Assembly: GCF_013912375.1 (NCBI RefSeq)
Contig: NZ_JACETV010000001.1
Span: forward strand, 682,001 to 746,000
Source of the DNA: Emticicia sp. BO119
Lineage (GTDB): Bacteria > Bacteroidota > Bacteroidia > Cytophagales > Spirosomataceae
Reading direction: 5' to 3'
Length of the DNA: 64,000 bases
The number at the start of each line of letters is the position of its first letter. The stretch's first letter is position 1. Positions 2,461 to 64,000 of this stretch are shown here, piece by piece. A model generated the notes under the pieces. The model was given only the letters and a program-made list of their open reading frames with translations, did not search any database and was not told the DNA's origin. The translations under genes and the position numbers were made by a program.

Positions 2461-5121
2461 ATGACTAAACAACCTAATAATCTTTCACCTCCTCGCTGGG
2501 CAGATAAACTCCTGAATGCTTTTCTTCCTCCCGATTTGGCAGAAGAACTACAAGGAGATATGCACGAGCAGTTTGAGGCACAGGTTGAGGAGGTAGGCTT
2601 AACCAAAGCCCGATGGCTATACATATGGGAAGTACTACTATTTTGTCGGCCTTATTATTTAAAGCGCCGTCTTAATGCGCAAATTATTTCTATGAATGAC
2701 TATTACTTTTTAATAAACCCTACAATGATAAGCAATTACTTTAAAATCGCCTTTCGGACTTTGTTTAATAATAAAGCCTATTCGGCCATTAATATCATCG
2801 GGCTAAGCATTGGGTTAGCCGCCGCCATGCTGATTATTCTCTATACCAAAGACGAATTAAGCTATGACAGATTTCACGCCAATAATCCGAATATATATCG
2901 GCTTACCTATCAGTCTTTCGCGCCCAAAGGAGGAATGATTTACCAGACAGGCAATACTGGCTACCTGCAAGGACCAAGGTTTGCAGCAGGAGTGCCTGAA
3001 ATACAATCGTATGTCAGATATCAGGCTGAAAGGCGGGATATGAAATTGAATAATGAAATTGTGAGTCAGGAAGTATTCACTACTGATCCTGATTTTTTTA
3101 ATGTTTTCTCGTTCCCACTGATAAACGGTGATGCTACTACTGCACTAAAGCAGCCTAAATCAGTTGTAGTATCAGAAAATATTGCTGAGAAAAGTTTTGG
3201 TACAGCCAACGCTTTAGGTAAAGTACTGATGGTAAAAGAAAATGATAAATTCGAACCTTACACAGTCACAGGTGTTGTCAGAAAATCTCCACAAAATTCC
3301 TCTATCAAATTTGATGTATTGTTGCCATTAAAAGCAGGTAAAGAAGAAATGGAAAATAGTGAAAACTGGCTGAGTACCTCTTTGAATACCTTTGTTCTAC
3401 TTAATCCAAAGGCTGATGCAAAAGCAGTAGCTACTAAAGTAAACAGTATTTTCCAGATTGAGGCGAAAGAGGTAAGAAAATTGTATGCCGAAAAATACGA
3501 AATGAATGAGCAGTGGGTGTATTCGCTTCAACCTTTTACAGATGTCCATTTAAACAAAGACCTCAATGCCGATAATGGACTGGTAGATGCCAGTAACCCT
3601 GCTTTCTCTTATATTTTATCGGGTATAGCACTGTTTATTCTCTTGATCGCCTGTATAAATTTCGTAAACCTGTCCATAGCGAGATCAGTAAAACGAGCCA
3701 AAGAAATTGGCGTAAGAAAAGTAGTAGGAGGCGGAAGGTCTCAATTGATATTCCAGTTTTTAGGTGAGTCTTTTATGCTATGCTCTGCTGCTTTTTTATT
3801 GGCCATTCTTTTAGTTTGGTTTACGCTACCTACTTTCAATCAATTAGCTAATAAAGTGCTTATGCTTAATTATTTGCTTGATACTAAGCTTATTCTTGGA
3901 TATATCGGTCTTTTCTTCCTTACAGGTTTATTAGCAGGGTTTTATCCGGCTCTGGTCTTATCCGGCTATAATCCTGTCCAAACACTTTACCAACGCTTTA
4001 CTTTTTCAGGAAAAAACTACCTGCAAAAATTATTGGTTGTTGTGCAATTCTCTCTGGCTTCCTTTATGATTATTGCCGCCATCACTATTTATTCTCAGCT
4101 GAATTATCTGACCAATAAAGACTTAGGATATGACGACAAACAGGTAATAAGTCTACGAAAGCCTAACCTTACCCGCAAAGAAGCCCAATTATTGAAAGCT
4201 GAGTTGCTGAGAAACCCGGATATATTAGCAGTAGCACCTAAAAATAATGGTTTTTGGGGGACAAGCGCTAAAATCAACATAGACCAGACACTAAGTTTTG
4301 CTTATGAAACAGTTGATGAATCTTTTCTTCCCATGTTTAAGATTCCGATTGTGAAAGGCCGTAATTTTTCTCCTGATTTTCCTACTGATTCCTCTCAATC
4401 AGTCCTGGTGAATGAAGCATTTGTCAGATATGCTAACTGGAAAGACCCTATCGGTCAGACTCTGACTATTTCATATAACAATAATGAAAAATACAAGGTG
4501 ATTGGTGTAGTGAAAGATTACCATTCCCGTCCGTTGAACTATGAAATCAAAGGACAAGTATTTACCATGCGGCAAGGCAACGATTACGGAAAATCATTTA
4601 TAAAAGTTAAGCCAAATACAGAAACAGCCAGTTTGCAATACATAGAGAAAACCTTCAAAAAGCTTTTCCCAATGAACCCCTATACTTACCAGTTTGTCGA
4701 AGAAATTAACAAAGAGAATTATGCTGATGAGGCCAAATGGCGGCAAATTATGATTTTCGGTGCCATACTCACTATCTTCATTTCGTGTATTGGTCTGTTT
4801 GGCCTGGCAACGCTTACAGCCGAGCGCCGAACCAAAGAAATTGGTATCAGAAAAGTATTGGGCGCATCAGTAAGCAGTGTGGTTCAATTGCTCTCCTCCG
4901 ATTTCATCAGGCTTGTAGGATTATCCTTAGTATTTGCATTTCCTACAGCTTATTATGCTATTGAAAAATGGCTGCAGAACTATCCTTACAGAGTAAGCAT
5001 CAGTATCTGGCCTTTTGTCATAACTGCCTTGATTGCTATAATGATAGCCTTTTTCACCGTAAGCATTCAATCTATTCGTGCAGCATTAATGAATCCGATA
5101 AAAAGTTTAAAAAATGAATAA
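2461..5121 (+). CDS. FtsX/MacB-like ABC transporter permease with N-terminal prefix domain
   Basis: This is an inner-membrane permease of about 886 residues from the ATG at 2461. That start is preferred because the next paralogue begins the same way (MxxPxPPxWADKLLxAFLP); an in-frame GTG at 2416 would add 15 residues that look like hairpin sequence. Residues 1-85 are a soluble prefix domain (a permease prefix domain seen in PadR-linked permeases) containing LQGDMHEQFE. A first transmembrane helix, MacB-like periplasmic domain, FtsX domain, second periplasmic domain and second FtsX domain follow. The signature TKEIGIRKVLGAS lies near 4830. It is tandem with the preceding and following paralogues; substrate and ATPase partner are unknown. 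Confidence 0.93.
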   Translation: MTKQPNNLSPPRWADKLLNAFLPPDLAEELQGDMHEQFEAQVEEVGLTKARWLYIWEVLLFCRPYYLKRRLNAQIISMNDYYFLINPTMISNYFKIAFRTLFNNKAYSAINIIGLSIGLAAAMLIILYTKDELSYDRFHANNPNIYRLTYQSFAPKGGMIYQTGNTGYLQGPRFAAGVPEIQSYVRYQAERRDMKLNNEIVSQEVFTTDPDFFNVFSFPLINGDATTALKQPKSVVVSENIAEKSFGTANALGKVLMVKENDKFEPYTVTGVVRKSPQNSSIKFDVLLPLKAGKEEMENSENWLSTSLNTFVLLNPKADAKAVATKVNSIFQIEAKEVRKLYAEKYEMNEQWVYSLQPFTDVHLNKDLNADNGLVDASNPAFSYILSGIALFILLIACINFVNLSIARSVKRAKEIGVRKVVGGGRSQLIFQFLGESFMLCSAAFLLAILLVWFTLPTFNQLANKVLMLNYLLDTKLILGYIGLFFLTGLLAGFYPALVLSGYNPVQTLYQRFTFSGKNYLQKLLVVVQFSLASFMIIAAITIYSQLNYLTNKDLGYDDKQVISLRKPNLTRKEAQLLKAELLRNPDILAVAPKNNGFWGTSAKINIDQTLSFAYETVDESFLPMFKIPIVKGRNFSPDFPTDSSQSVLVNEAFVRYANWKDPIGQTLTISYNNNEKYKVIGVVKDYHSRPLNYEIKGQVFTMRQGNDYGKSFIKVKPNTETASLQYIEKTFKKLFPMNPYTYQFVEEINKENYADEAKWRQIMIFGAILTIFISCIGLFGLATLTAERRTKEIGIRKVLGASVSSVVQLLSSDFIRLVGLSLVFAFPTAYYAIEKWLQNYPYRVSISIWPFVITALIAIMIAFFTVSIQSIRAALMNPIKSLKNE

Positions 5122-54170: not shown

Positions 54171-56803
54171 AAGATTCCCCTCGTCCTTACCGCTGGGCAG
54201 AATGGCTAATCAGCCACATAGCCGCCCCGCATCTGAGAGAGGAATTATTAGGTGATTTAGACGAATTCTTTTATAAACGTGGGCATAAGTACGGCTATTC
54301 CACTGCAAAATTATTGTATCTGGTGGATATACTTTTACTGCTTCACCCTCGCCTCTGGCGCAGGCTGGCAGATACTTATGGAAAAACTATTTATTCATCA
54401 TCCTTTATCCTTCACCCAGATATGTTACGCAACTATTTCAAAATCGCTTTTCGTAACCTTTTTAAAAATAAGGTTTATTCATTCATCAATATCAGTGGAC
54501 TAGCCGTGGGCATTGCCTGCTGCCTGGCTATCTGCCTCTATGTGTACGATGAATTTAGTTTCGACCGCTTTCACACCAATGCCCACAACCTCTATCGCAT
54601 AGTAGAAAAACAGAATCAGGCAGGTACATTATACGATGTGGCTTCGTCTCCGGGCCCATTATCCCCCACCTTAAAAGCTGAATTTGCCGAAATCAAACAA
54701 TATTGTCGCTTTGACCGATATTGGGGCATATTAAAACATGATTCTACCATTATTGAAGACATAGATATCCTGGGTGTCGACCATTCATTTTTCAATATGT
54801 TCAGTTTCCCATTACTACGAGGTAATGTAAATCAGGCTTTATTGAACCCTAATGAAATTATTATTACTGAAAGCGCGGCCGAGCGATTCTTTGGCAGTCA
54901 ATGGAAACATTCAACCAATATATTAGGTCAGCCATTTCAATTCAAAGACAAAACCTTTACGCTAACCGGAATCGCCCAGAACCCCCCACATAATTCACAT
55001 ATTCAATTTGATATTCTGTTTTCTTATCTTTTGACACAGAACGACAAAGACCAGTATAAATGGAATAATGATAGCCATTACAATTACATCTTATTACAAC
55101 CTCATACAGATGTAGCATCCCTCGAAAAAAAGATATTCAGTTTTATGAATAAGTATCGGCCTTCTGATAAACCCACTATCAGGTTGCAACCAATGCTTGA
55201 TATTTATCTGAATCCGGATTTTAGCTTTCAAACAGACTGGCAGACTAAGGGCAGTCGGTTATATATATGGGTTTTTATATCCGTTGGCAGTATTGTATTG
55301 CTCATTGCCTTATTCAATTTCATGAATCTATCAACTGCAAGAGCTATGAAACGGGCACAAGAAGTAGGGGTTAGAAAAGCCATTGGCGCGGTTCGTTTAC
55401 AGTTAGTCGTACAGTTTTTGGGAGAATCATTATTGTTGACGTTGCTATCAGTTATTTCGGCCATTGGTTTATTGATTCTGTTTTTGCCTTTACTGAATGA
55501 AATAGCAGCCAAGTCATTAACAATTCCATTTGCTGAACCTGGGTTCTGGTTGGTAATTATTGGTTTTACCTTGTTAATTAGTTTTCTGGCGGGTATGTAC
55601 CCCGCCTTTTACCTATCCGGTTTCCAACCCGTTAAAGTGCTGAAGGGCGTGTTTAACGTTCAATCTGGACAACTTTTCCGTCGCACATTGGTGGTAAGTC
55701 AATTCACAATGTCAGTCATGCTGGTAACAGGAGCTATCGTCATTTACAAGCAATTAACATTCATGCAGAACAGAAGTCTGGGATTTGATAAATCACAATT
55801 ATTATCAACCTGGATACGCCCAGAACTGCACAATAAAATTCAGATGATAAAAGCTGATTTGCAACAACAAAGCAGTATTGCTCAAGTAACCCTGACTACA
55901 GGAAACCTGGTAGATATGAACAACTCAACCTACGATTTTTCTTGGGAAGGACAAGCACCGGGAGAGGGAATGGTAATTACACATGCCAATTCGGATCCTG
56001 AATTTTTGAAAACTACCGGAATGAAACTCATTGCCGGAAGAAATTTTGATCCAAAAATTGCAAGTGATACAACAGATGCTTATTTAATTAATGAAACTGC
56101 CGCGAAGCGAATGAAATGGACACCCGAACAGGCTTTAGGCAAAACAATTACATTCTGGCAAAATAAAGGAAAGGTAATCGGAGTATTGAAAGATTTTCAC
56201 TTCCGCCCACTCACAGCAGCTATCGAACCATTTTTGTTACGCTATTGGCCTCACGGTCAATATAATTATAATAATTTCTTGATCAAAACCCGTCCTGATA
56301 TGAATCATGAAGGTATTGTAGCATTAGAACAGATTTATAAGAAATATAATAGCATTATGCCGCCATATTACGAATTTGTCGACCAGTCTTTAGAAAACCA
56401 ATACCGCACCGAGCAACGCACAAGTAAGGTAGTATTCTATTTTTCAGCATTGGCAATTTTAGTATCATGCCTCGGTTTATTTGGTTTGGTAACCTTCACG
56501 GCCGAGCAGCGCACTAAAGAAATTGGTACCCGCAAAGTACTGGGAGCAACAGTAACCAATATTGTAACCTTATTATCAAAAGACTTCCTGCAATTGGTAG
56601 TATTAGCAATCATTATCGCATCTCCGCTTGCATGGTTCCTCATGAACCAGTGGCTGGCAGATTTTGCCTATAAAACCAATTTTGAATGGTGGATATTTGC
56701 CTTGTCAGGTTTTCTGGCGATTGTTATTGCTCTAATTACTGTCAGTTTTAAAGCGATCAGAGCTGCACTTATAAATCCTGTAAAAAGTTTGAGAAGTGAG
56801 TAA
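54167..56803 (+). CDS. FtsX/MacB-like ABC transporter permease with prefix domain, PadR-linked
   Basis: An 878-residue inner-membrane protein from ATG 54167, which overlaps padR; an earlier TTG at 54125 would add 14 residues. The prefix domain is RPYRWAEWLISHIAAPHLREELLGDLDEFF (residues 4-75). The first helix lies near NYFKIAFRNLFKNKVYSFIN, then two MacB-like periplasmic domains each followed by an FtsX domain (about 55270-55650 and 56420-56800), with TKEIGTRKVLGAT in the second. It is a paralogue of the three permeases at 1-7985, but these lack a padR gene. No ATPase gene is nearby. Confidence 0.93.
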   Translation: MKDSPRPYRWAEWLISHIAAPHLREELLGDLDEFFYKRGHKYGYSTAKLLYLVDILLLLHPRLWRRLADTYGKTIYSSSFILHPDMLRNYFKIAFRNLFKNKVYSFINISGLAVGIACCLAICLYVYDEFSFDRFHTNAHNLYRIVEKQNQAGTLYDVASSPGPLSPTLKAEFAEIKQYCRFDRYWGILKHDSTIIEDIDILGVDHSFFNMFSFPLLRGNVNQALLNPNEIIITESAAERFFGSQWKHSTNILGQPFQFKDKTFTLTGIAQNPPHNSHIQFDILFSYLLTQNDKDQYKWNNDSHYNYILLQPHTDVASLEKKIFSFMNKYRPSDKPTIRLQPMLDIYLNPDFSFQTDWQTKGSRLYIWVFISVGSIVLLIALFNFMNLSTARAMKRAQEVGVRKAIGAVRLQLVVQFLGESLLLTLLSVISAIGLLILFLPLLNEIAAKSLTIPFAEPGFWLVIIGFTLLISFLAGMYPAFYLSGFQPVKVLKGVFNVQSGQLFRRTLVVSQFTMSVMLVTGAIVIYKQLTFMQNRSLGFDKSQLLSTWIRPELHNKIQMIKADLQQQSSIAQVTLTTGNLVDMNNSTYDFSWEGQAPGEGMVITHANSDPEFLKTTGMKLIAGRNFDPKIASDTTDAYLINETAAKRMKWTPEQALGKTITFWQNKGKVIGVLKDFHFRPLTAAIEPFLLRYWPHGQYNYNNFLIKTRPDMNHEGIVALEQIYKKYNSIMPPYYEFVDQSLENQYRTEQRTSKVVFYFSALAILVSCLGLFGLVTFTAEQRTKEIGTRKVLGATVTNIVTLLSKDFLQLVVLAIIIASPLAWFLMNQWLADFAYKTNFEWWIFALSGFLAIVIALITVSFKAIRAALINPVKSLRSE

Positions 56804-57161
56804 TTTTAGCATAACTATCTCCTGGTAAATAATATATTCATGTATAGGTTATCGCCGGGTAAAGATGATAGTTTACCTGACTATGCGTGTTTTTCCAACA
56901 ACCTCAACTCTATCTTATTTCATCAGATAGAAATAACTATGAGTGATAGATATATATTTGTATCCGTTTAATAAGTGTTTGTGGCGGAATGGAAAAAAAA
57001 ACAGAAATACGCGCGTATCGCAAGCAGGATGGTATTAAAATTGTACAAGGAAAAGGAATAATTAAACATTGATCAAACCCGATTTTTTTTACTGCTGAAA
57101 ACCGGGCCTTCAGATGGTAATTATCAGATTGCTTTCGTTATACTTTTCCCTCAATTAGCTA
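56804..57161. other. Upstream region of the giant secreted protein gene
   Basis: About 358 bases without a convincing gene. TATATTTG (56953-56960) matches the -7 element, but no TTG/TTTG lies at the expected distance and the leader would be nearly 200 bases. A 27-codon frame (56990-57073) is too short to support as a gene. Confidence 0.4.
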
Positions 57162-60100
57162 ATGAATCACCTATCCATCTCTGGTAAACTGCTGTACTTG
57201 ATTTTTTGCTTATTGCTGTCTTCTATTACTTTTGCTCAATTTCCTCAGTCAGGCAAAAGCTCTGTAAAAAAGCAAGTCAGTACTGCTATCACTCCAATTA
57301 ATGCTCTTGACCGTACACTGAATGCCAGTGTACCTGATAAGATAAAAAACAAAGAATTTAAGGGCTTTTCAGTTTCAGAGCCTCCTTCTTTCAGTAATCT
57401 CAGTTCGGTTTCGGTTAGTCCGAAAAGTATGAGAACTGCGATGGCTTTTATTCAAGCTAATCCATCCGGAAAAAAAATAAATAGCCAGAATAGTCATCTG
57501 ACGCCGACAATTGGAATCAATACATTCCTGCTTTATGCCAAAGCCGAAAAAACTGATTTTCATAATTTTTCTATCGCGTCGGGTGCTATAAGACCTCCAA
57601 CATCTTTATCAGCCAGCCCTGCCAATGTTTGTGAGGGAAATGATGTTACCCTGGCAGCGACTTGTCAGGCTGGAACCGTGACCTGGTATAATCAGTCCAG
57701 CGGAGGTTCATCTATTGGTACCGGAGGCTCATTAGTTATAAACCCTACTGTTACCCAAACCTACTACGCATCTTGTTATGTTAGCAATATACCGGCAGAA
57801 AGTACCAGAGAATCTGCCGGAACAGTAACTGTTACAAGCGTACCAGCAGACCCAACGGGTGTTTCGGTGAGTCAGGAAAATATATGTACCGGAACGGCTG
57901 TCATACTAACTGCTACCTGTGCTACAGGAACGATTGCCTGGTATAATCAGGCAACGGGCGGGTCGGCTATCGGAACAGGTTCGGAACTCAGCCAGAGTCC
58001 GACTGAAAATACTACTTACTACGCCGCCTGTGCAGGCGAATTTTGCGAGAGTGTGCGTGTAGCTACGGAAGAGATAACTGTTATGACTATGCCGGATGCC
58101 CCAACAGGTGTGCTAGTAAACCAGACAAGTGTTTTTATTGGCGGAGGCGTTTATTTAACAGCCAACTGCAGCACCGGTACTATTACGTGGTATGACCAGG
58201 CCGATGAAGGTTCTGCTTTAGGAACAGGGTCTGGATTTAATATTATCCCTGCTGCTGCTACTACGTATTATGCAAGTTGTAAAAACGGCTATTGTGAGAG
58301 CAATCGGGTACCTTGCAGCGAGGTAACAGTGGTGAATCTGACAGACCCGACCGGGGTCATGGTAAATAAGACAAGTATTGTGAATGGTGCTAAGGTTATG
58401 CTTAGTGCTGCCTGTAGTGCCGGAAAGGTTGTCTGGTATAACCAGGAAAATGGGGGTAGTGATATAGGCGGGGGTACTTCTGTGACCTATTATCCGGCTC
58501 AAAACACCACTTTCTATGCTACTTGCCGAAATGGTATTTATGAAACTGCAAGAGTTGCTACCCATACAGTAAATGTGGTGAGTATGCCTCGATTACCTTA
58601 TATGGTAAGTGACAATATTAATCCGGGAGAGACGCAATCAGAGCTGGAGGACCTGACAAATGTGAATGGAACGTTATTTTTTATCACTGAAAACGCGGAG
58701 TATGGCCGGGAATTGTGGAAAACTGATGGAACCCTGGAAGGAACTACGCTGGTGAAGGATATTAATCCCGGACCAGACCCTTCGTATATCAACTCACTTA
58801 AAAAAGTAGGTAATCTTTTGTTTTTTGCCGCAAGCGATGGGGTAAATGGCAATGAATTATGGATAAGTAACGGGGAAGTAGATGGGACAGTTATGGTAAA
58901 AGATATAACTGAAGGTATTACCAATTCCCAGATCAGTGACCTCATTGATATAAACGGAACGGCCTATTTTGCTGTGAACGATGAAGAAGGCATCGGGAAG
59001 GAATTATGGAAAAGTGACGGAACTGCCAGTGGTACTGTATTAGTGAAAGATATATGGCCGGGTATGAATAGTGCCGATGTGAGTAGTTTTACCAGTGTAA
59101 ACGGTACTTTATTTTTTACTGCTATTACTGAAGGAAAGGGTAGAGAACTGTGGAAAAGTGATGGTTCTACCGAAGGGACAATCATGGTAAAAGATATCTA
59201 TAGTGGTATGAATATGAGTTCTAATCCTACGAATCTGACTAATGTAAACGGTATTCTCTTTTTTGTTGCCAACGATGGTGTGAATGGAAAGGAGCTCTGG
59301 CAAAGTGATGGTTCGGAGGACGGCACCACTCTTGTAAAAAACATTACGAGTGGGGCTGGTAATACCACTATAGATGAGATTACGGCAATTGGTAATATAG
59401 CATTTATGTCTCTTACAACCAGCACCTATGGCATGGAACTCTGGCGCAGCGACGGCACATCTGACGGAACCTATCTGGTAAAAGATATTCGTACAGGGTC
59501 TCATTCGAGTAATATAGAATACCTGGTGAATATGGAGGGGGTTTTATATTTTACGGCAGATGATGGTACTTATGGTAATGAACTCTGGAAAAGTGATGGC
59601 ACTGAAAGTGGAACGGTAATGGTCAAAGATATCTGGGAGGATTTTGAAAGTTCGATTGGTTCAGCTCTGGTTACGAGCGAAAGTACTTTGTATTTTGGAG
59701 CCGATGACGGAAGGCGTGGTACTATTCTCTGGAAAAGTGATGGGACAGTCGAAGGAACCGATATGGTAAAAGATATAAGCAAGGGGCCTTCAAGTTCAGC
59801 CCCAAGCCTTCTTACTGATGCTAACGGTAAATTATATTTCAGGTCATATTCAAGTTCAGAGATATTTAATTATGGTGCTGAAATGTGGAGCCTTGGTACT
59901 TGTACTGATGTGAACAGAATCGTAGCAACCACAGGCAAAACCAGGTATTTTAACGCTCAGCAACAGGTTATTGCAGCAACCGAAATATGCCATTGCGATA
60001 TATTCAATAACCTTATCAGCAAAATAGATGCTGTAGGGAACAATCCTGTGGTGGGGGTAGTTGATGTCAAAGAATGGATTGATGAAGCCGCTTCTGCCGA

Positions 60101-63100
60101 CTTTGTGAGACGCCATTTCGAGATTAATCCTGTGGCCAGCACTCCTGTTGCCACCGGTAAGGTAACTTTATATTTTACTCAGACAGATTTTGACGCTTAT
60201 AATAGCGCCATTGACCCGGAAGCACCTAAACTACCTGCCAGCAATTCAGATACTGAAGGTGTGGCAAATGTGGGAATTGCTAAATATACCGGCAAGAGCA
60301 ATGATGAAACCGGAATGCCTGATACCTATAATGCCGGATTTGAGTGGATTAACCCGGCGGATGCAGATATAGTCTGGAACAGTGAGGCGGAAAGATGGGA
60401 GGTAAGTTTTGCAACCACGGGTTTTGGAGGCTTTTTTGTAAAAGGCCTGACATTTGGCATGCCTGAATCTGTAAAAGCGAGCTCAACCAGTATTTGTGAG
60501 GGGCAGAGTGTTACCTTAACTGCGAGTTGTGCTGTGGGTACGGTTGTCTGGTATAAACAATTGGTAGATGGTACTGCTATTGGTACCGGTTCGCCATTTA
60601 TACAGACCCCTGAAAATACTTTTAATAGTTATTATGCCGCCTGCGAAACAGATGATTTAAAAAGTTTCCGGGTATCGCCCGAGACAATAATTCTTACCAA
60701 CATTGATAGACCTACAGATGTATCGGTTGATAAAACTGCTATTGTCGCCGGATCAAAAGTAATCCTCAACGCTACTTGTAGTATTGGGAAGGTGGTGTGG
60801 TACAATCAGGCCAGCGGAGGGGCCGCCATAGGCTTTGGTACTTCTGTTGCTTATTATCCTACAAAAAATACAATCTTTTATGCTACCTGCCAGAGCGGTA
60901 TCTGTGAAACTCCGGCTATTGGCACCAGCGAGGTAAGCGTTGTACGTCTGCCTCAGCTGCCTTATCTGGTAAGTGATGTTTATCCAGGCGAAACCTCTTC
61001 AGCTCCTAATAATTTTACGAATGTGAACGGAACTGTATTTTTCTCAGCCGTCACAGAAGCCTATGGAAAGGAACTATGGAAAAGCGATGGTACGGTAGAA
61101 GGTACTGTTCTTGTAAAGGATATAAATCCCGGAGAAGGAGGGTCAGTTATCGACCAGATTACAAAAGTAGGTAATCTTGTATTTTTTACTGCTAACGATG
61201 GGGTACACGGAACTGAATTGTGGGTAAGTAACGGAGAAACCGAAGGAACTTTTATGCTTAATGAAATTAATGTCGGTATGACTCTACCTGAAATAGATTA
61301 TATAACCGATGTTAACGGAATTGCCTTCTTTACGGCCTATAAGACCACTACCGGGTTTGAATTATGGAAAAGTGATGGTACTCCTGAAGGTACCATGATA
61401 GTGAAAGAAATAAGAAGTGGAAATCTTGGAGGGGATCCCTATGCGCTTACAAATGTGAACGGAATCTTGTTTTTTTCGGCAGACGATGGCGAAAATGGCA
61501 GAGAACTGTGGAAAAGTGATGGTACTGAAGCCGGAACAATACTGGTAAAGGATATTTCTGCCGGTGGTGCTTCGGAGCCTGACAATATGAAAAATATTAA
61601 TGGTATTCTGTATTTCTATGCCAGTGATAATTTGAATGGCCCTGAATTATGGAGAAGCGATGGCACTGACGCTGGAACATTTATAGTAAAAGACATTAAC
61701 AGTGGCAATGGCGGGGTTTATCTGCATTTGATGGAAGAAATGAACGGCATTATATATATGGTTCTTAATGATGGCGTAAACGGCGAAGAACTCTGGCGAA
61801 GTGATGGAACACCCATAGGCACTTACCTTGTTAAAGATATTTATGAGGGAAGTAATGGTAGTGGTATCCAGAAGATTTTACCTGTGAACGGGAAATTATA
61901 CTTTGTGGCAAATGATGGTATTAACGGTGAAGAATTGTGGAAAAGTGATGGCACACCTGAAGGTACTGTTTTAGTAAAAGACATAAGGGAGGGGGGATCA
62001 AGCGGATTGCGCTCTTTGTTAACAAATAGTGACGGTACACTTTATTTCGTTGCCAATGATGGTATCAATGGGGATTTACTCTGGAAAAGTGACGGTTCTG
62101 CTGACGGGACTGTTGTAGTAAAAGATATTTCTACCGGAAGCACAAGTTCTCAACCAAATAATATTACCAATGTGAACGGAAAAATATATTTCAAGGCAAG
62201 GCCGGGAGGTGACCTCTATACTACCGGTGATGAAATATGGAGCCTCGGAACCTGTACTGATGCGAATAAAATTGTAAGTGCTATTGGTAAAACCAGCTTT
62301 TTTAACAGTCAGCCGCAACCTGTTGCCGATACCCTTAGCTGTCATTGTGATTTATACAATAAGCTTATTACTACTATCAAGGCAACAGGAGAGATGCCGT
62401 TGAGTAATGCGCTGGAGGTAAAAGAATGGATAGATGAGACCGCCTCAGATACTTTTGTCAGAAGACACTATGAGATTTATTCCAATTCGGATGCGGTAGC
62501 CCAGGCGGCTGGTACGGGACGTGTAACTTTGTATTTTACTCAGGCTGATTTTGATGCCTATAACAATGCTGTAGGCGGAGATGCCTCCAAACTTCCAACC
62601 AATAGCGATGATGATACAGGGAAAGCTAATGTCATCATCCATAGATATCCGGGTACGAGCGGGGATGAGAGCGGAACGCCGGAGAGTTATTCTGTAGAGC
62701 CGGTTCTGATTAATCCGGAGAATTCAGCTATCAGTTGGAATAATGCCCTTGAAAGATGGGAGGTTACTTTTGCTACGGTAGGATTAGGCGGCTATTTCCT
62801 GTATGGGCTGGAATTACCAGACCCTACGGAAGTTGCTGTTGATAAAACAGTGTTATGTGCCGGAGGCAGCGTTTCTTTAACGGCTACCTGCGAAACCGGA
62901 ACAATAACCTGGTATAATCAGTCTTCAGGTGGTTCGGCTGTTGGTACAGGCTCGCCCCTGGTTATTGCAGTAAATACCACCACTACTTATTATGCAGCCT
63001 GCGAAGATGATGGAGCCACCAGTAACAGAATAGCTACAGATGAGGTAACGACGAACCCCATACCAAATGAGCCGATCGGGGCTGGTGTGAGTAGTACAGC

Positions 63101-64000
63101 GATTATTTATGGGAATCCGGTTACTTTGAATGCTGTTTGTACCACCGGAGATGTTGTCTGGTATAATCAGCTTTCAGGCGGTGCGGCTATTGGTACAGGT
63201 AATCTGGTTACTTTCTATCCGGCATCTACGGTTACCTATTATGCTACCTGTAAAACCAGTAATTGTGAAAGCAGTAAAGCTGGAACTCATGAGGTAGTCG
63301 TAACAGCTATGGATTTAGTGCCTTATATGGTGAAAAATATCAATATAGCTACTGACGAAAGCTCTGAACCGAACAAGTTTGTGGCCGTTAATGGTACGCT
63401 GTATTTTGTAGCAACAGATGGTATATCAGGTATTGAGTTATGGAAAACAGATGGAACAAATGAAGGAACTACCCTTGTAAAAGATATTACCTCCGGTGGA
63501 GATTCGGATATTTCCAGTCTGACCAATGTGAATGGTACGCTGTATTTCAGTAGAAAAACAGCGAGTTTTTACGAACTATGGAAATCTGATGGCTCGGATG
63601 CCGGAACTATAAAAGTAAAAGATGTGTGGGCCGTGAATCCCGGGCAGAGTATTGATGGTTTTCGGGCCCTGAATAGTGTCTTGTATTTTGTTGCTTTAAA
63701 TACCAGTGATCATGTAGCGGAGCTATGGAAAAGTGATGGAACCAGTGATGGTACTGTGCAAGTAATGAATATTAATGAGAATGGGGTAGATATAAGAGGA
63801 GATGAACTGGTAGTTATGAATAATGTTTTATATTTTCAGGCAAATACCGATGCTTATGGCACAGAATTGTGGAAGACTGACGGTGCAAACACTGAAATAG
63901 TAAAAGATATCGTGGAAGGGACAAGCGATTCGAGAGTACAGTACTTAACGAATGTCAATGGCATTTTATACTTTGCAGCCAGTGATGCTACAAACGGGCT
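57162..64000 (+). CDS. Giant secreted modular protein with Ig-like and ELWxSDGT repeats (3' end outside window)
   Basis: One frame of at least 2279 codons, open to the window edge; codons checked at 58710, 60120, 61080 and 63900 stay in phase. It starts with a signal peptide (GKLLYLIFCLLLSSITFAQ). After a 120-residue linker come four Ig-like repeats (57594-58586; pattern TC.xGTVxWYNQxxGG..IGTG..YYA.C), then eight ELWKSDGT-type repeats plus a ninth ending MWSLGTCTD (58587-59905), then a cap domain of about 185 residues (CHCD, VKEWIDE, VRRHFEI, VTLYFTQTDFDAYN, WEVSFATTGFGG). This block then repeats with two Ig-like domains. It resembles T9SS-exported adhesins or extracellular enzymes' accessory parts; no catalytic domain is seen so far. 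The C-terminal sorting domain would lie outside the window. Confidence 0.9.
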   Translation, partial: MNHLSISGKLLYLIFCLLLSSITFAQFPQSGKSSVKKQVSTAITPINALDRTLNASVPDKIKNKEFKGFSVSEPPSFSNLSSVSVSPKSMRTAMAFIQANPSGKKINSQNSHLTPTIGINTFLLYAKAEKTDFHNFSIASGAIRPPTSLSASPANVCEGNDVTLAATCQAGTVTWYNQSSGGSSIGTGGSLVINPTVTQTYYASCYVSNIPAESTRESAGTVTVTSVPADPTGVSVSQENICTGTAVILTATCATGTIAWYNQATGGSAIGTGSELSQSPTENTTYYAACAGEFCESVRVATEEITVMTMPDAPTGVLVNQTSVFIGGGVYLTANCSTGTITWYDQADEGSALGTGSGFNIIPAAATTYYASCKNGYCESNRVPCSEVTVVNLTDPTGVMVNKTSIVNGAKVMLSAACSAGKVVWYNQENGGSDIGGGTSVTYYPAQNTTFYATCRNGIYETARVATHTVNVVSMPRLPYMVSDNINPGETQSELEDLTNVNGTLFFITENAEYGRELWKTDGTLEGTTLVKDINPGPDPSYINSLKKVGNLLFFAASDGVNGNELWISNGEVDGTVMVKDITEGITNSQISDLIDINGTAYFAVNDEEGIGKELWKSDGTASGTVLVKDIWPGMNSADVSSFTSVNGTLFFTAITEGKGRELWKSDGSTEGTIMVKDIYSGMNMSSNPTNLTNVNGILFFVANDGVNGKELWQSDGSEDGTTLVKNITSGAGNTTIDEITAIGNIAFMSLTTSTYGMELWRSDGTSDGTYLVKDIRTGSHSSNIEYLVNMEGVLYFTADDGTYGNELWKSDGTESGTVMVKDIWEDFESSIGSALVTSESTLYFGADDGRRGTILWKSDGTVEGTDMVKDISKGPSSSAPSLLTDANGKLYFRSYSSSEIFNYGAEMWSLGTCTDVNRIVATTGKTRYFNAQQQVIAATEICHCDIFNNLISKIDAVGNNPVVGVVDVKEWIDEAASADFVRRHFEINPVASTPVATGKVTLYFTQTDFDAYNSAIDPEAPKLPASNSDTEGVANVGIAKYTGKSNDETGMPDTYNAGFEWINPADADIVWNSEAERWEVSFATTGFGGFFVKGLTFGMPESVKASSTSICEGQSVTLTASCAVGTVVWYKQLVDGTAIGTGSPFIQTPENTFNSYYAACETDDLKSFRVSPETIILTNIDRPTDVSVDKTAIVAGSKVILNATCSIGKVVWYNQASGGAAIGFGTSVAYYPTKNTIFYATCQSGICETPAIGTSEVSVVRLPQLPYLVSDVYPGETSSAPNNFTNVNGTVFFSAVTEAYGKELWKSDGTVEGTVLVKDINPGEGGSVIDQITKVGNLVFFTANDGVHGTELWVSNGETEGTFMLNEINVGMTLPEIDYITDVNGIAFFTAYKTTTGFELWKSDGTPEGTMIVKEIRSGNLGGDPYALTNVNGILFFSADDGENGRELWKSDGTEAGTILVKDISAGGASEPDNMKNINGILYFYASDNLNGPELWRSDGTDAGTFIVKDINSGNGGVYLHLMEEMNGIIYMVLNDGVNGEELWRSDGTPIGTYLVKDIYEGSNGSGIQKILPVNGKLYFVANDGINGEELWKSDGTPEGTVLVKDIREGGSSGLRSLLTNSDGTLYFVANDGINGDLLWKSDGSADGTVVVKDISTGSTSSQPNNITNVNGKIYFKARPGGDLYTTGDEIWSLGTCTDANKIVSAIGKTSFFNSQPQPVADTLSCHCDLYNKLITTIKATGEMPLSNALEVKEWIDETASDTFVRRHYEIYSNSDAVAQAAGTGRVTLYFTQADFDAYNNAVGGDASKLPTNSDDDTGKANVIIHRYPGTSGDESGTPESYSVEPVLINPENSAISWNNALERWEVTFATVGLGGYFLYGLELPDPTEVAVDKTVLCAGGSVSLTATCETGTITWYNQSSGGSAVGTGSPLVIAVNTTTTYYAACEDDGATSNRIATDEVTTNPIPNEPIGAGVSSTAIIYGNPVTLNAVCTTGDVVWYNQLSGGAAIGTGNLVTFYPASTVTYYATCKTSNCESSKAGTHEVVVTAMDLVPYMVKNINIATDESSEPNKFVAVNGTLYFVATDGISGIELWKTDGTNEGTTLVKDITSGGDSDISSLTNVNGTLYFSRKTASFYELWKSDGSDAGTIKVKDVWAVNPGQSIDGFRALNSVLYFVALNTSDHVAELWKSDGTSDGTVQVMNINENGVDIRGDELVVMNNVLYFQANTDAYGTELWKTDGANTEIVKDIVEGTSDSRVQYLTNVNGILYFAASDATNG
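57594..60461 (+). repeat. Supermodule 1 of the giant protein
   Basis: Four Ig-like domains, eight full ELWxSDGT repeats (TELW/KELW spacing about 50-56 residues) and one degenerate repeat, then the cap domain (about 59908-60461). It has two more Ig-like domains than supermodule 2. Confidence 0.8.
60462..62816 (+). repeat. Supermodule 2 of the giant protein
   Basis: 2355 bases: two Ig-like domains (60462-60950), eight full ELWxSDGT repeats and one degenerate repeat (60951-62250), then the cap domain (about 62262-62816). The same word WSLGTCTD falls 2352 bases after its copy in supermodule 1. The second ELW unit is ELWVSNGE here and ELWISNGE in supermodule 1, so order within the block is conserved. 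Confidence 0.85.
62817..64000 (+). repeat. Supermodule 3 of the giant protein (cut by window edge)
   Basis: Two Ig-like domains (62817-63311) followed by the start of a third ELW block (at least four units seen). The opening words PYMVKNIN and NGTLYF match the openings of blocks 1 and 2 about 2361 bases earlier. Confidence 0.8.

What the first reader, a model, noticed from the sequence alone, without database searches (positions are those of the whole stretch)
57162..64000. Giant secreted protein built from 784-residue supermodules
Seen: one open frame of over 2279 codons in which a block of Ig-like repeats, exactly eight ELWxSDGT repeats plus a degenerate ninth, and a cap domain repeats. WSLGTCTD recurs at a spacing of exactly 2352 bases, and unit-specific words (second unit SNGE) keep their order, so whole supermodules were duplicated, not single repeats. 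Known: ELWxxDGT and Ig-like repeats occur in Bacteroidota surface proteins exported by T9SS. Inference: a long surface fibre or adhesin whose length can change by recombination between supermodules.
Basis: partly seen in the sequence, partly recalled or inferred. Interest (0 to 1): 0.75.

Follow-up and report, generated by a model that had tools for sequence, protein, structure and literature searches.

The report
Giant three-propeller surface protein
A very large, probably secreted bacterial protein appears to be a chain of three nine-bladed propeller domains joined by immunoglobulin-like links, and its repeat type seems to be counted in nines in diverse bacteria.

Summary
The frame continues past the window to a stop: an intact 3231-residue protein with three supermodules, not two. 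Each is eight ELWxSDGT repeats plus a ninth ending in E[LMI]WSLG, then an unnamed ~190-residue cap; four, two, two and at least three Ig_7 domains lie before, between and after. Spacing is 784, then 786 residues.

What it most likely is: each repeat block is a closed nine-bladed beta-propeller. AlphaFold2 models supermodule 2 this way (block pLDDT 79-98), with an N-terminal strand left to complete blade nine; the fold matches beta-propellers in the PDB. Nine looks like a family property: among uninterrupted arrays in whole reading frames, 54 of 61 in a cross-phylum scan and 17 of 17 in a separate Bacteroidota survey have 9 or 18 blades. Interrupted and degenerate arrays were not counted.

The cap has no convincing Pfam, NCBIfam or PDB sequence match. 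In other Bacteroidota it follows propellers, peptidases or other bodies, often before a T9SS sorting domain.

Not supported: length change by recombination between supermodules. Their longest shared exact DNA is 24 bases. Adhesion is inferred, not shown.

The parts
57162..57236 (+). Signal-peptide-like N-terminus (residues 1-25)
   Evidence: Seen in the translation; no signal-peptide predictor was run
57594..58580 (+). Four Ig_7 domains (approx. residues 145-473)
   Evidence: PF19081, 8 stretches in the window part and 12 in the whole protein; WY.Q motifs at 175, 260, 343, 425; borders approximate
58593..59897 (+). Propeller 1: N-terminal closing strand, eight ELWxSDGT blades and blade nine (residues 478-912)
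   Evidence: TIGR04534; repeat positions
59898..60449 (+). Cap domain 1 (residues 913-1096)
   Evidence: Alignment of three copies
60450..60947 (+). Two Ig_7 domains (approx. residues 1097-1262)
   Evidence: PF19081; motifs at 1130 and 1213
60951..62249 (+). Propeller 2 (residues 1264-1696), modelled as a nine-bladed propeller
   Evidence: AlphaFold2, pLDDT mostly 90-98; PDB fold matches over model residues 165-601
62250..62810 (+). Cap domain 2 (residues 1697-1883)
   Evidence: model pLDDT 74 overall
62811..63305 (+). Two Ig_7 domains (approx. residues 1884-2048)
   Evidence: PF19081; motifs at 1917 and 2000
63309..64000 (+). Start of propeller 3; continues beyond the window (residues 2050 to about 2482), followed by cap 3, three or more Ig domains and GCX_COOH at 3179-3231
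   Evidence: Extension in L011

Best explanation
It is a secreted Bacteroidota surface protein built as beads on a string. Three units, each a closed nine-bladed beta-propeller of ELWxxDGT repeats followed by one cap domain, are held apart by Ig_7 domains and end in a C-terminal GCX_COOH domain. Shown by sequence: the intact frame, the repeat counts, the domain order. Predicted: blades of four strands, with the strand before blade 1 ([LV]PY[ML]V[SK][DN]) supplying the missing fourth strand of blade nine. Inferred: export by the T9SS with GCX_COOH as anchor or sorting end; the propellers present binding faces away from the cell, so the protein works as a multivalent adhesin or binding protein. 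The units arose by old duplications, the clearest between units 1 and 2. Present-day exchange between them is unlikely.
Against: No experiment. Model coordinates could not be inspected, so the pairing of the closing strand is read from DSSP only. As I recall, the named fold matches are mainly seven- or eight-bladed; none proves nine. In the half-repeat test this protein's own first unit scored -1.2, which I put down to one extra residue in its closing strand. Seven of 61 scanned arrays have other counts (17 three times, 16, 15, 14, 8), and 14 interrupted frames in each sample were not counted. Related frames in the genus are looser: 9 in L012, L092 and L094, 10 in L091 and L093, 19 in L090, irregular in L089; the other five ELW frames of this genome are degenerate or need gap filling. 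Supermodule 3 keeps no blade register with 1 or 2 except at repeat 9. The protein lacks the classical T9SS tail. Ligand, surface location and adhesion were not tested.
Confidence: 0.72

Rival explanations
1. The ELW blocks are open, elongated beta-solenoids or stacks rather than closed propellers, making one long fibre.
For: Tandem 48-residue repeats with conserved glycines could stack linearly; arrays of 18 run on without a linker in 26 of 61 scan arrays.
Against: A linear stack needs no fixed number, yet counts are mostly 9 or 18. In 7 of the 14 interrupted scan frames the break falls exactly between two arrays of nine. The half-repeat ends fit ring closure; AlphaFold2 and fold matches give a propeller.
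Confidence: 0.06
2. A length-variable protein whose supermodules are gained and lost by homologous recombination.
For: Cap number differs among related genes: three here, one or two in frames of sister genomes G001 and G007.
Against: Longest exact shared DNA 24 bases between supermodules; codon-aligned DNA identity 54-62%, fourfold sites 30-38% identical; the three cap copies have branches of 0.52-0.71 changes per column, while a likely ortholog pair between species is about 0.1 apart.
Confidence: 0.06
3. The propellers are enzymes or enzyme scaffolds (for example glycan-cleaving), not binding domains.
For: Secreted propellers are often glycosidases or gates of peptidases (recalled); fold matches include peptidases with propeller domains.
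Against: No catalytic domain was found in the protein by Pfam or NCBIfam; the blade consensus looks mainly structural (inference).
Confidence: 0.15

Closest known systems
ELWxxDGT repeat proteins (NCBIfam TIGR04534)
   Same: The same repeat, 24 stretches in this protein; six other reading frames in this genome also carry it
   Different: Most uninterrupted relatives have one array of 9 or 18, and only 3 of 80 scan loci have the cap; this one has three arrays of 9, each with a cap, and Ig links
Grappling hook protein GhpA of Aureispira (PDB 9flp and others)
   Same: Ig_7-type domains; phmmer E 7.4e-36, best stretch our 2719-3039 on its 4384-4706, inside the piece titled base, 4151-5009
   Different: No sequence match of our first ELW block and cap to it or to any PDB chain at E 10; hook assembly was not testable here
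Single-chain beta-propellers (DPP-IV, BamB, Fbw7, designed Scone-E)
   Different: Sequence identity 6-14%; the block here has nine blades by sequence and by DSSP. Nine-bladed propellers as such are known (17 papers listed; passages of PMC6805158)
ZU5 and GAIN domains (ankyrin, CD97, BAI3), for the cap only
   Different: Best plain Foldseek E is 0.023, to a GH98 enzyme; the self-cleavage motif H[FL][ST] is in 0 of 48 caps

Membership tests
ELWxxDGT repeat family (TIGR04534) | Score over the curated cut-off of 65 bits | tested here: met
   1359.9 bits, 24 stretches
Beta-propeller | Tandem four-stranded blades in a ring | tested here: met
   Prediction only: DSSP pattern and pLDDT, fold matches over 165-601
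Beta-propeller | Ring closure by a blade shared between the two ends | tested here: inconclusive
   Half-repeat ends across 85 frames and DSSP fit; the pairing itself was not inspected, and this protein's own first unit scored -1.2
T9SS cargo | Classical C-terminal sorting domain Por_Secre_tail | tested here: not met
   No match at E 0.01 (NCBIfam) or 0.1 (Pfam); C-terminus is GCX_COOH
T9SS cargo | T9SS translocon in the same genome | tested here: met
   SprA, 2198 bits
T9SS cargo | Secretion lost in a T9SS mutant | not testable with these tools
   Needs a mutant
GhpA-like grappling hook | Ig_7-type stalk domains | tested here: met
GhpA-like grappling hook | Same sequence architecture over the rest of the protein | tested here: not met
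   First ELW block and cap have no PDB sequence match at E 10
ZU5/GAIN fold (cap) | Fold | tested here: inconclusive
ZU5/GAIN self-cleaving domains (cap) | H[FL][ST] cleavage motif (motif recalled) | tested here: not met
   0 of 48 caps; a hairpin G[FLM][SG] is in 47 of 48

The most novel reading that the evidence does not exclude
ELWxxDGT repeats form a prokaryote-wide family of nine-bladed beta-propellers in which blade number is held at nine even though blades keep being amplified one at a time; longer arrays are strings of nine-bladed rings. This protein strings three such rings on Ig links, each ring followed by a so far unnamed domain of secreted Bacteroidota proteins that may be a non-cleaving bacterial relative of ZU5/GAIN domains.
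Probability: 0.6. Interest if true: 0.65.

Novelty: new variant of a known kind. Interest (0 to 1): 0.5.

Why it matters
The repeat already has a family name but I found no solved structure by sequence and no paper naming it in the open library searched. A family whose arrays come mostly in nines across many phyla is a natural test of what fixes the number of blades in a propeller. The cap is an unnamed module of Bacteroidota secreted proteins: 56 of 222 genomes of the family carry it, own genome included.

Tried and rejected
Recombination between supermodules: rejected on DNA divergence. Tandem Repeats Finder found no array at 56000-64000; its longest period is 500 bases. Pfam and NCBIfam scans of 43 of the 48 collected caps gave only matches in one or two members, best E 0.0075. 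A viral-contig scan with the cap found no relative. Pfam lists odd names on the repeats (for example PB2_627-dom, IFR3_antag); on this protein all are below cut-off, while on relatives some pass by summing repeats; I dismissed them. A first hairpin count with a loose pattern was wrong in register and replaced.

Paper searches: 'ELWxxDGT', 'coathanger stack' and 'GCX-COOH' gave no paper. Of PMC9218822 and PMC6805158 I saw only passages returned by find; of other papers only search listings. The original grappling hook paper was not seen.

Full report
Observation. The open frame at 57162-64000 is real, 2279 codons to the window's end. The window lies at G000:C1:682001-746000. Stretch L011 shows the frame running on to a stop: 3231 residues, no internal stop, identical to the window where they overlap. 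There are three supermodules. WSLG[TS]CT is at residues 909, 1693 and 2479 (784 and 786 residues apart), and each block has eight ELWxSDGT-type repeats and a ninth.

Domains. NCBIfam gives ELWxxDGT_rpt (24 stretches) and GCX_COOH at 3179-3231; Pfam gives Ig_7 (12 stretches). By motif 11 Ig domains show: 4 before propeller 1, 2 before propeller 2, 2 before propeller 3 and 3 after. The Ig part matches the Aureispira grappling hook protein GhpA, E 7.4e-36.

Age of the duplications. Units 1 and 2 are 53% identical in protein, unit 3 is 45% identical to either; blade register is kept in 5 of 9 repeats between 1 and 2 and only at repeat 9 against 3. Codon-aligned DNA identity is 54-62%, fourfold sites 30-38% identical, longest exact shared DNA 24 bases. 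A tree of 18 of the collected caps leaves the three copies unresolved, on branches of 0.52-0.71, whereas a likely ortholog pair between this genome and G007 has branches of 0.03 and 0.07.

Propeller. I counted blades with a profile built from this protein's 24 full repeats and iterated on the fetched frames. The genome scan kept the best 80 of 566 relatives. 79 of the 80 loci (not L134) gave 88 frames with at least three blades: 13 were cut by a contig end, 61 were whole and uninterrupted, 14 interrupted. Of the 61, 28 have 9 and 26 have 18; the rest have 17 (three), 16, 15, 14 and 8. Four of these seven exceptions (16, 17, 14, 8) come from one genome, Planctomycetales bacterium 10988; two of the 17s (L130, L187) show a further degenerate blade by eye.

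That scan used a query of nine-blade and two ten-blade rows, which could disfavour short arrays. From all 22 genomes besides the window's own I fetched 32 regions. They gave 33 frames with at least three blades (two with fewer were dropped): 2 cut, 17 whole and uninterrupted, 14 interrupted. All 17 have 9 (14) or 18 (3). The interrupted frames of both samples were not counted; several need filling of gaps to reach 9 or 18, and others do not reach it. In 7 of the 14 interrupted scan frames the break parts two arrays of nine; the others read 9-8-9, 10-10, 9-7, 9-4-5, 14-3, 2-15 and 3-10.

Within the genus the count is looser: 9 in L012, L092 and L094, 10 in L091 and L093, 19 in L090, irregular in L089. 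In this genome the frame in L013 has 18 only if one gap is filled, and L014, L109, L110 and L111 are degenerate (17 with gaps filled, 8, 10, 3 and 6). These were not part of the two samples.

Closure. In 85 uncut frames with at least eight blades (75 from the scan, 10 of this genome and genus), the last repeat's match ends at median profile position 33, other repeats at 48. A half-repeat like VKDIN stands before the first blade in 64%, after the last in 7%, after other blades in 94%, in random stretches of the same frames in 21% (the stretch before the first blade was 15 residues, the others 24). This protein's own first unit scored -1.2 there, probably because its strand has one extra residue; the strand is visible by eye. 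A few frames (L116, L178) have nine full repeats and no half-repeat in front.

In 39 frames with exactly 18 blade hits, neighbouring blades are the most alike (mean score 113.8), with a small rise at offset nine (109.3, against 104.0 and 105.9 at eight and ten). I read this as amplification of single blades plus some doubling of whole rings. That propellers are amplified from single blades and that lineages prefer a blade number is in print (passages of PMC9218822).

Locus. In sister genome G007 the flanking genes, which I read by eye as two ABC-transporter permeases and an oxidoreductase, are 79.5-85% identical in DNA. There, too, a giant ELW gene (2192 residues, 19 blades, one cap) lies in this neighbourhood, but between the second permease and the oxidoreductase gene instead of between the two permeases. 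Aligned parts of the two giants are 43-55% identical in the four best matches. Loss of different old tandem copies, or movement of the gene, would explain it; I cannot tell which.

Export. SprA is encoded, with 61 GCX_COOH and 42 Por_Secre_tail matches in the genome. That GCX_COOH serves T9SS export is inferred from this company. Function as a multivalent adhesin is inference from architecture.

Noticed in passing
L090 (G007:C1:128000-142000) against L011: The giant gene sits at neighbouring, different junctions of a conserved gene row in two sister species; each junction is empty in the other.
   Followed up: partly
window 59898-60449 and 62250-62810, and 48 collected copies (three of them in this protein): The cap is an unnamed domain of Bacteroidota secreted proteins, with a possible ZU5/GAIN-like fold and a conserved G-F-S/G hairpin.
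   Followed up: partly
L128, L157, L170 (Planctomycetales bacterium 10988): One genome holds four of the seven uninterrupted arrays that are not 9 or 18 blades (16, 17, 14, 8), as if it used seven- and eight-bladed rings too.
   Followed up: no
G000:C24:494789-494932 and G000:C10:5-145: Two GCX_COOH ends lie at contig ends, so repeated giant genes may break this assembly.
   Followed up: no
L178, L116: Some nine-blade frames have nine full repeats and no half-repeat before the first, suggesting a different closure with the same blade number.
   Followed up: no
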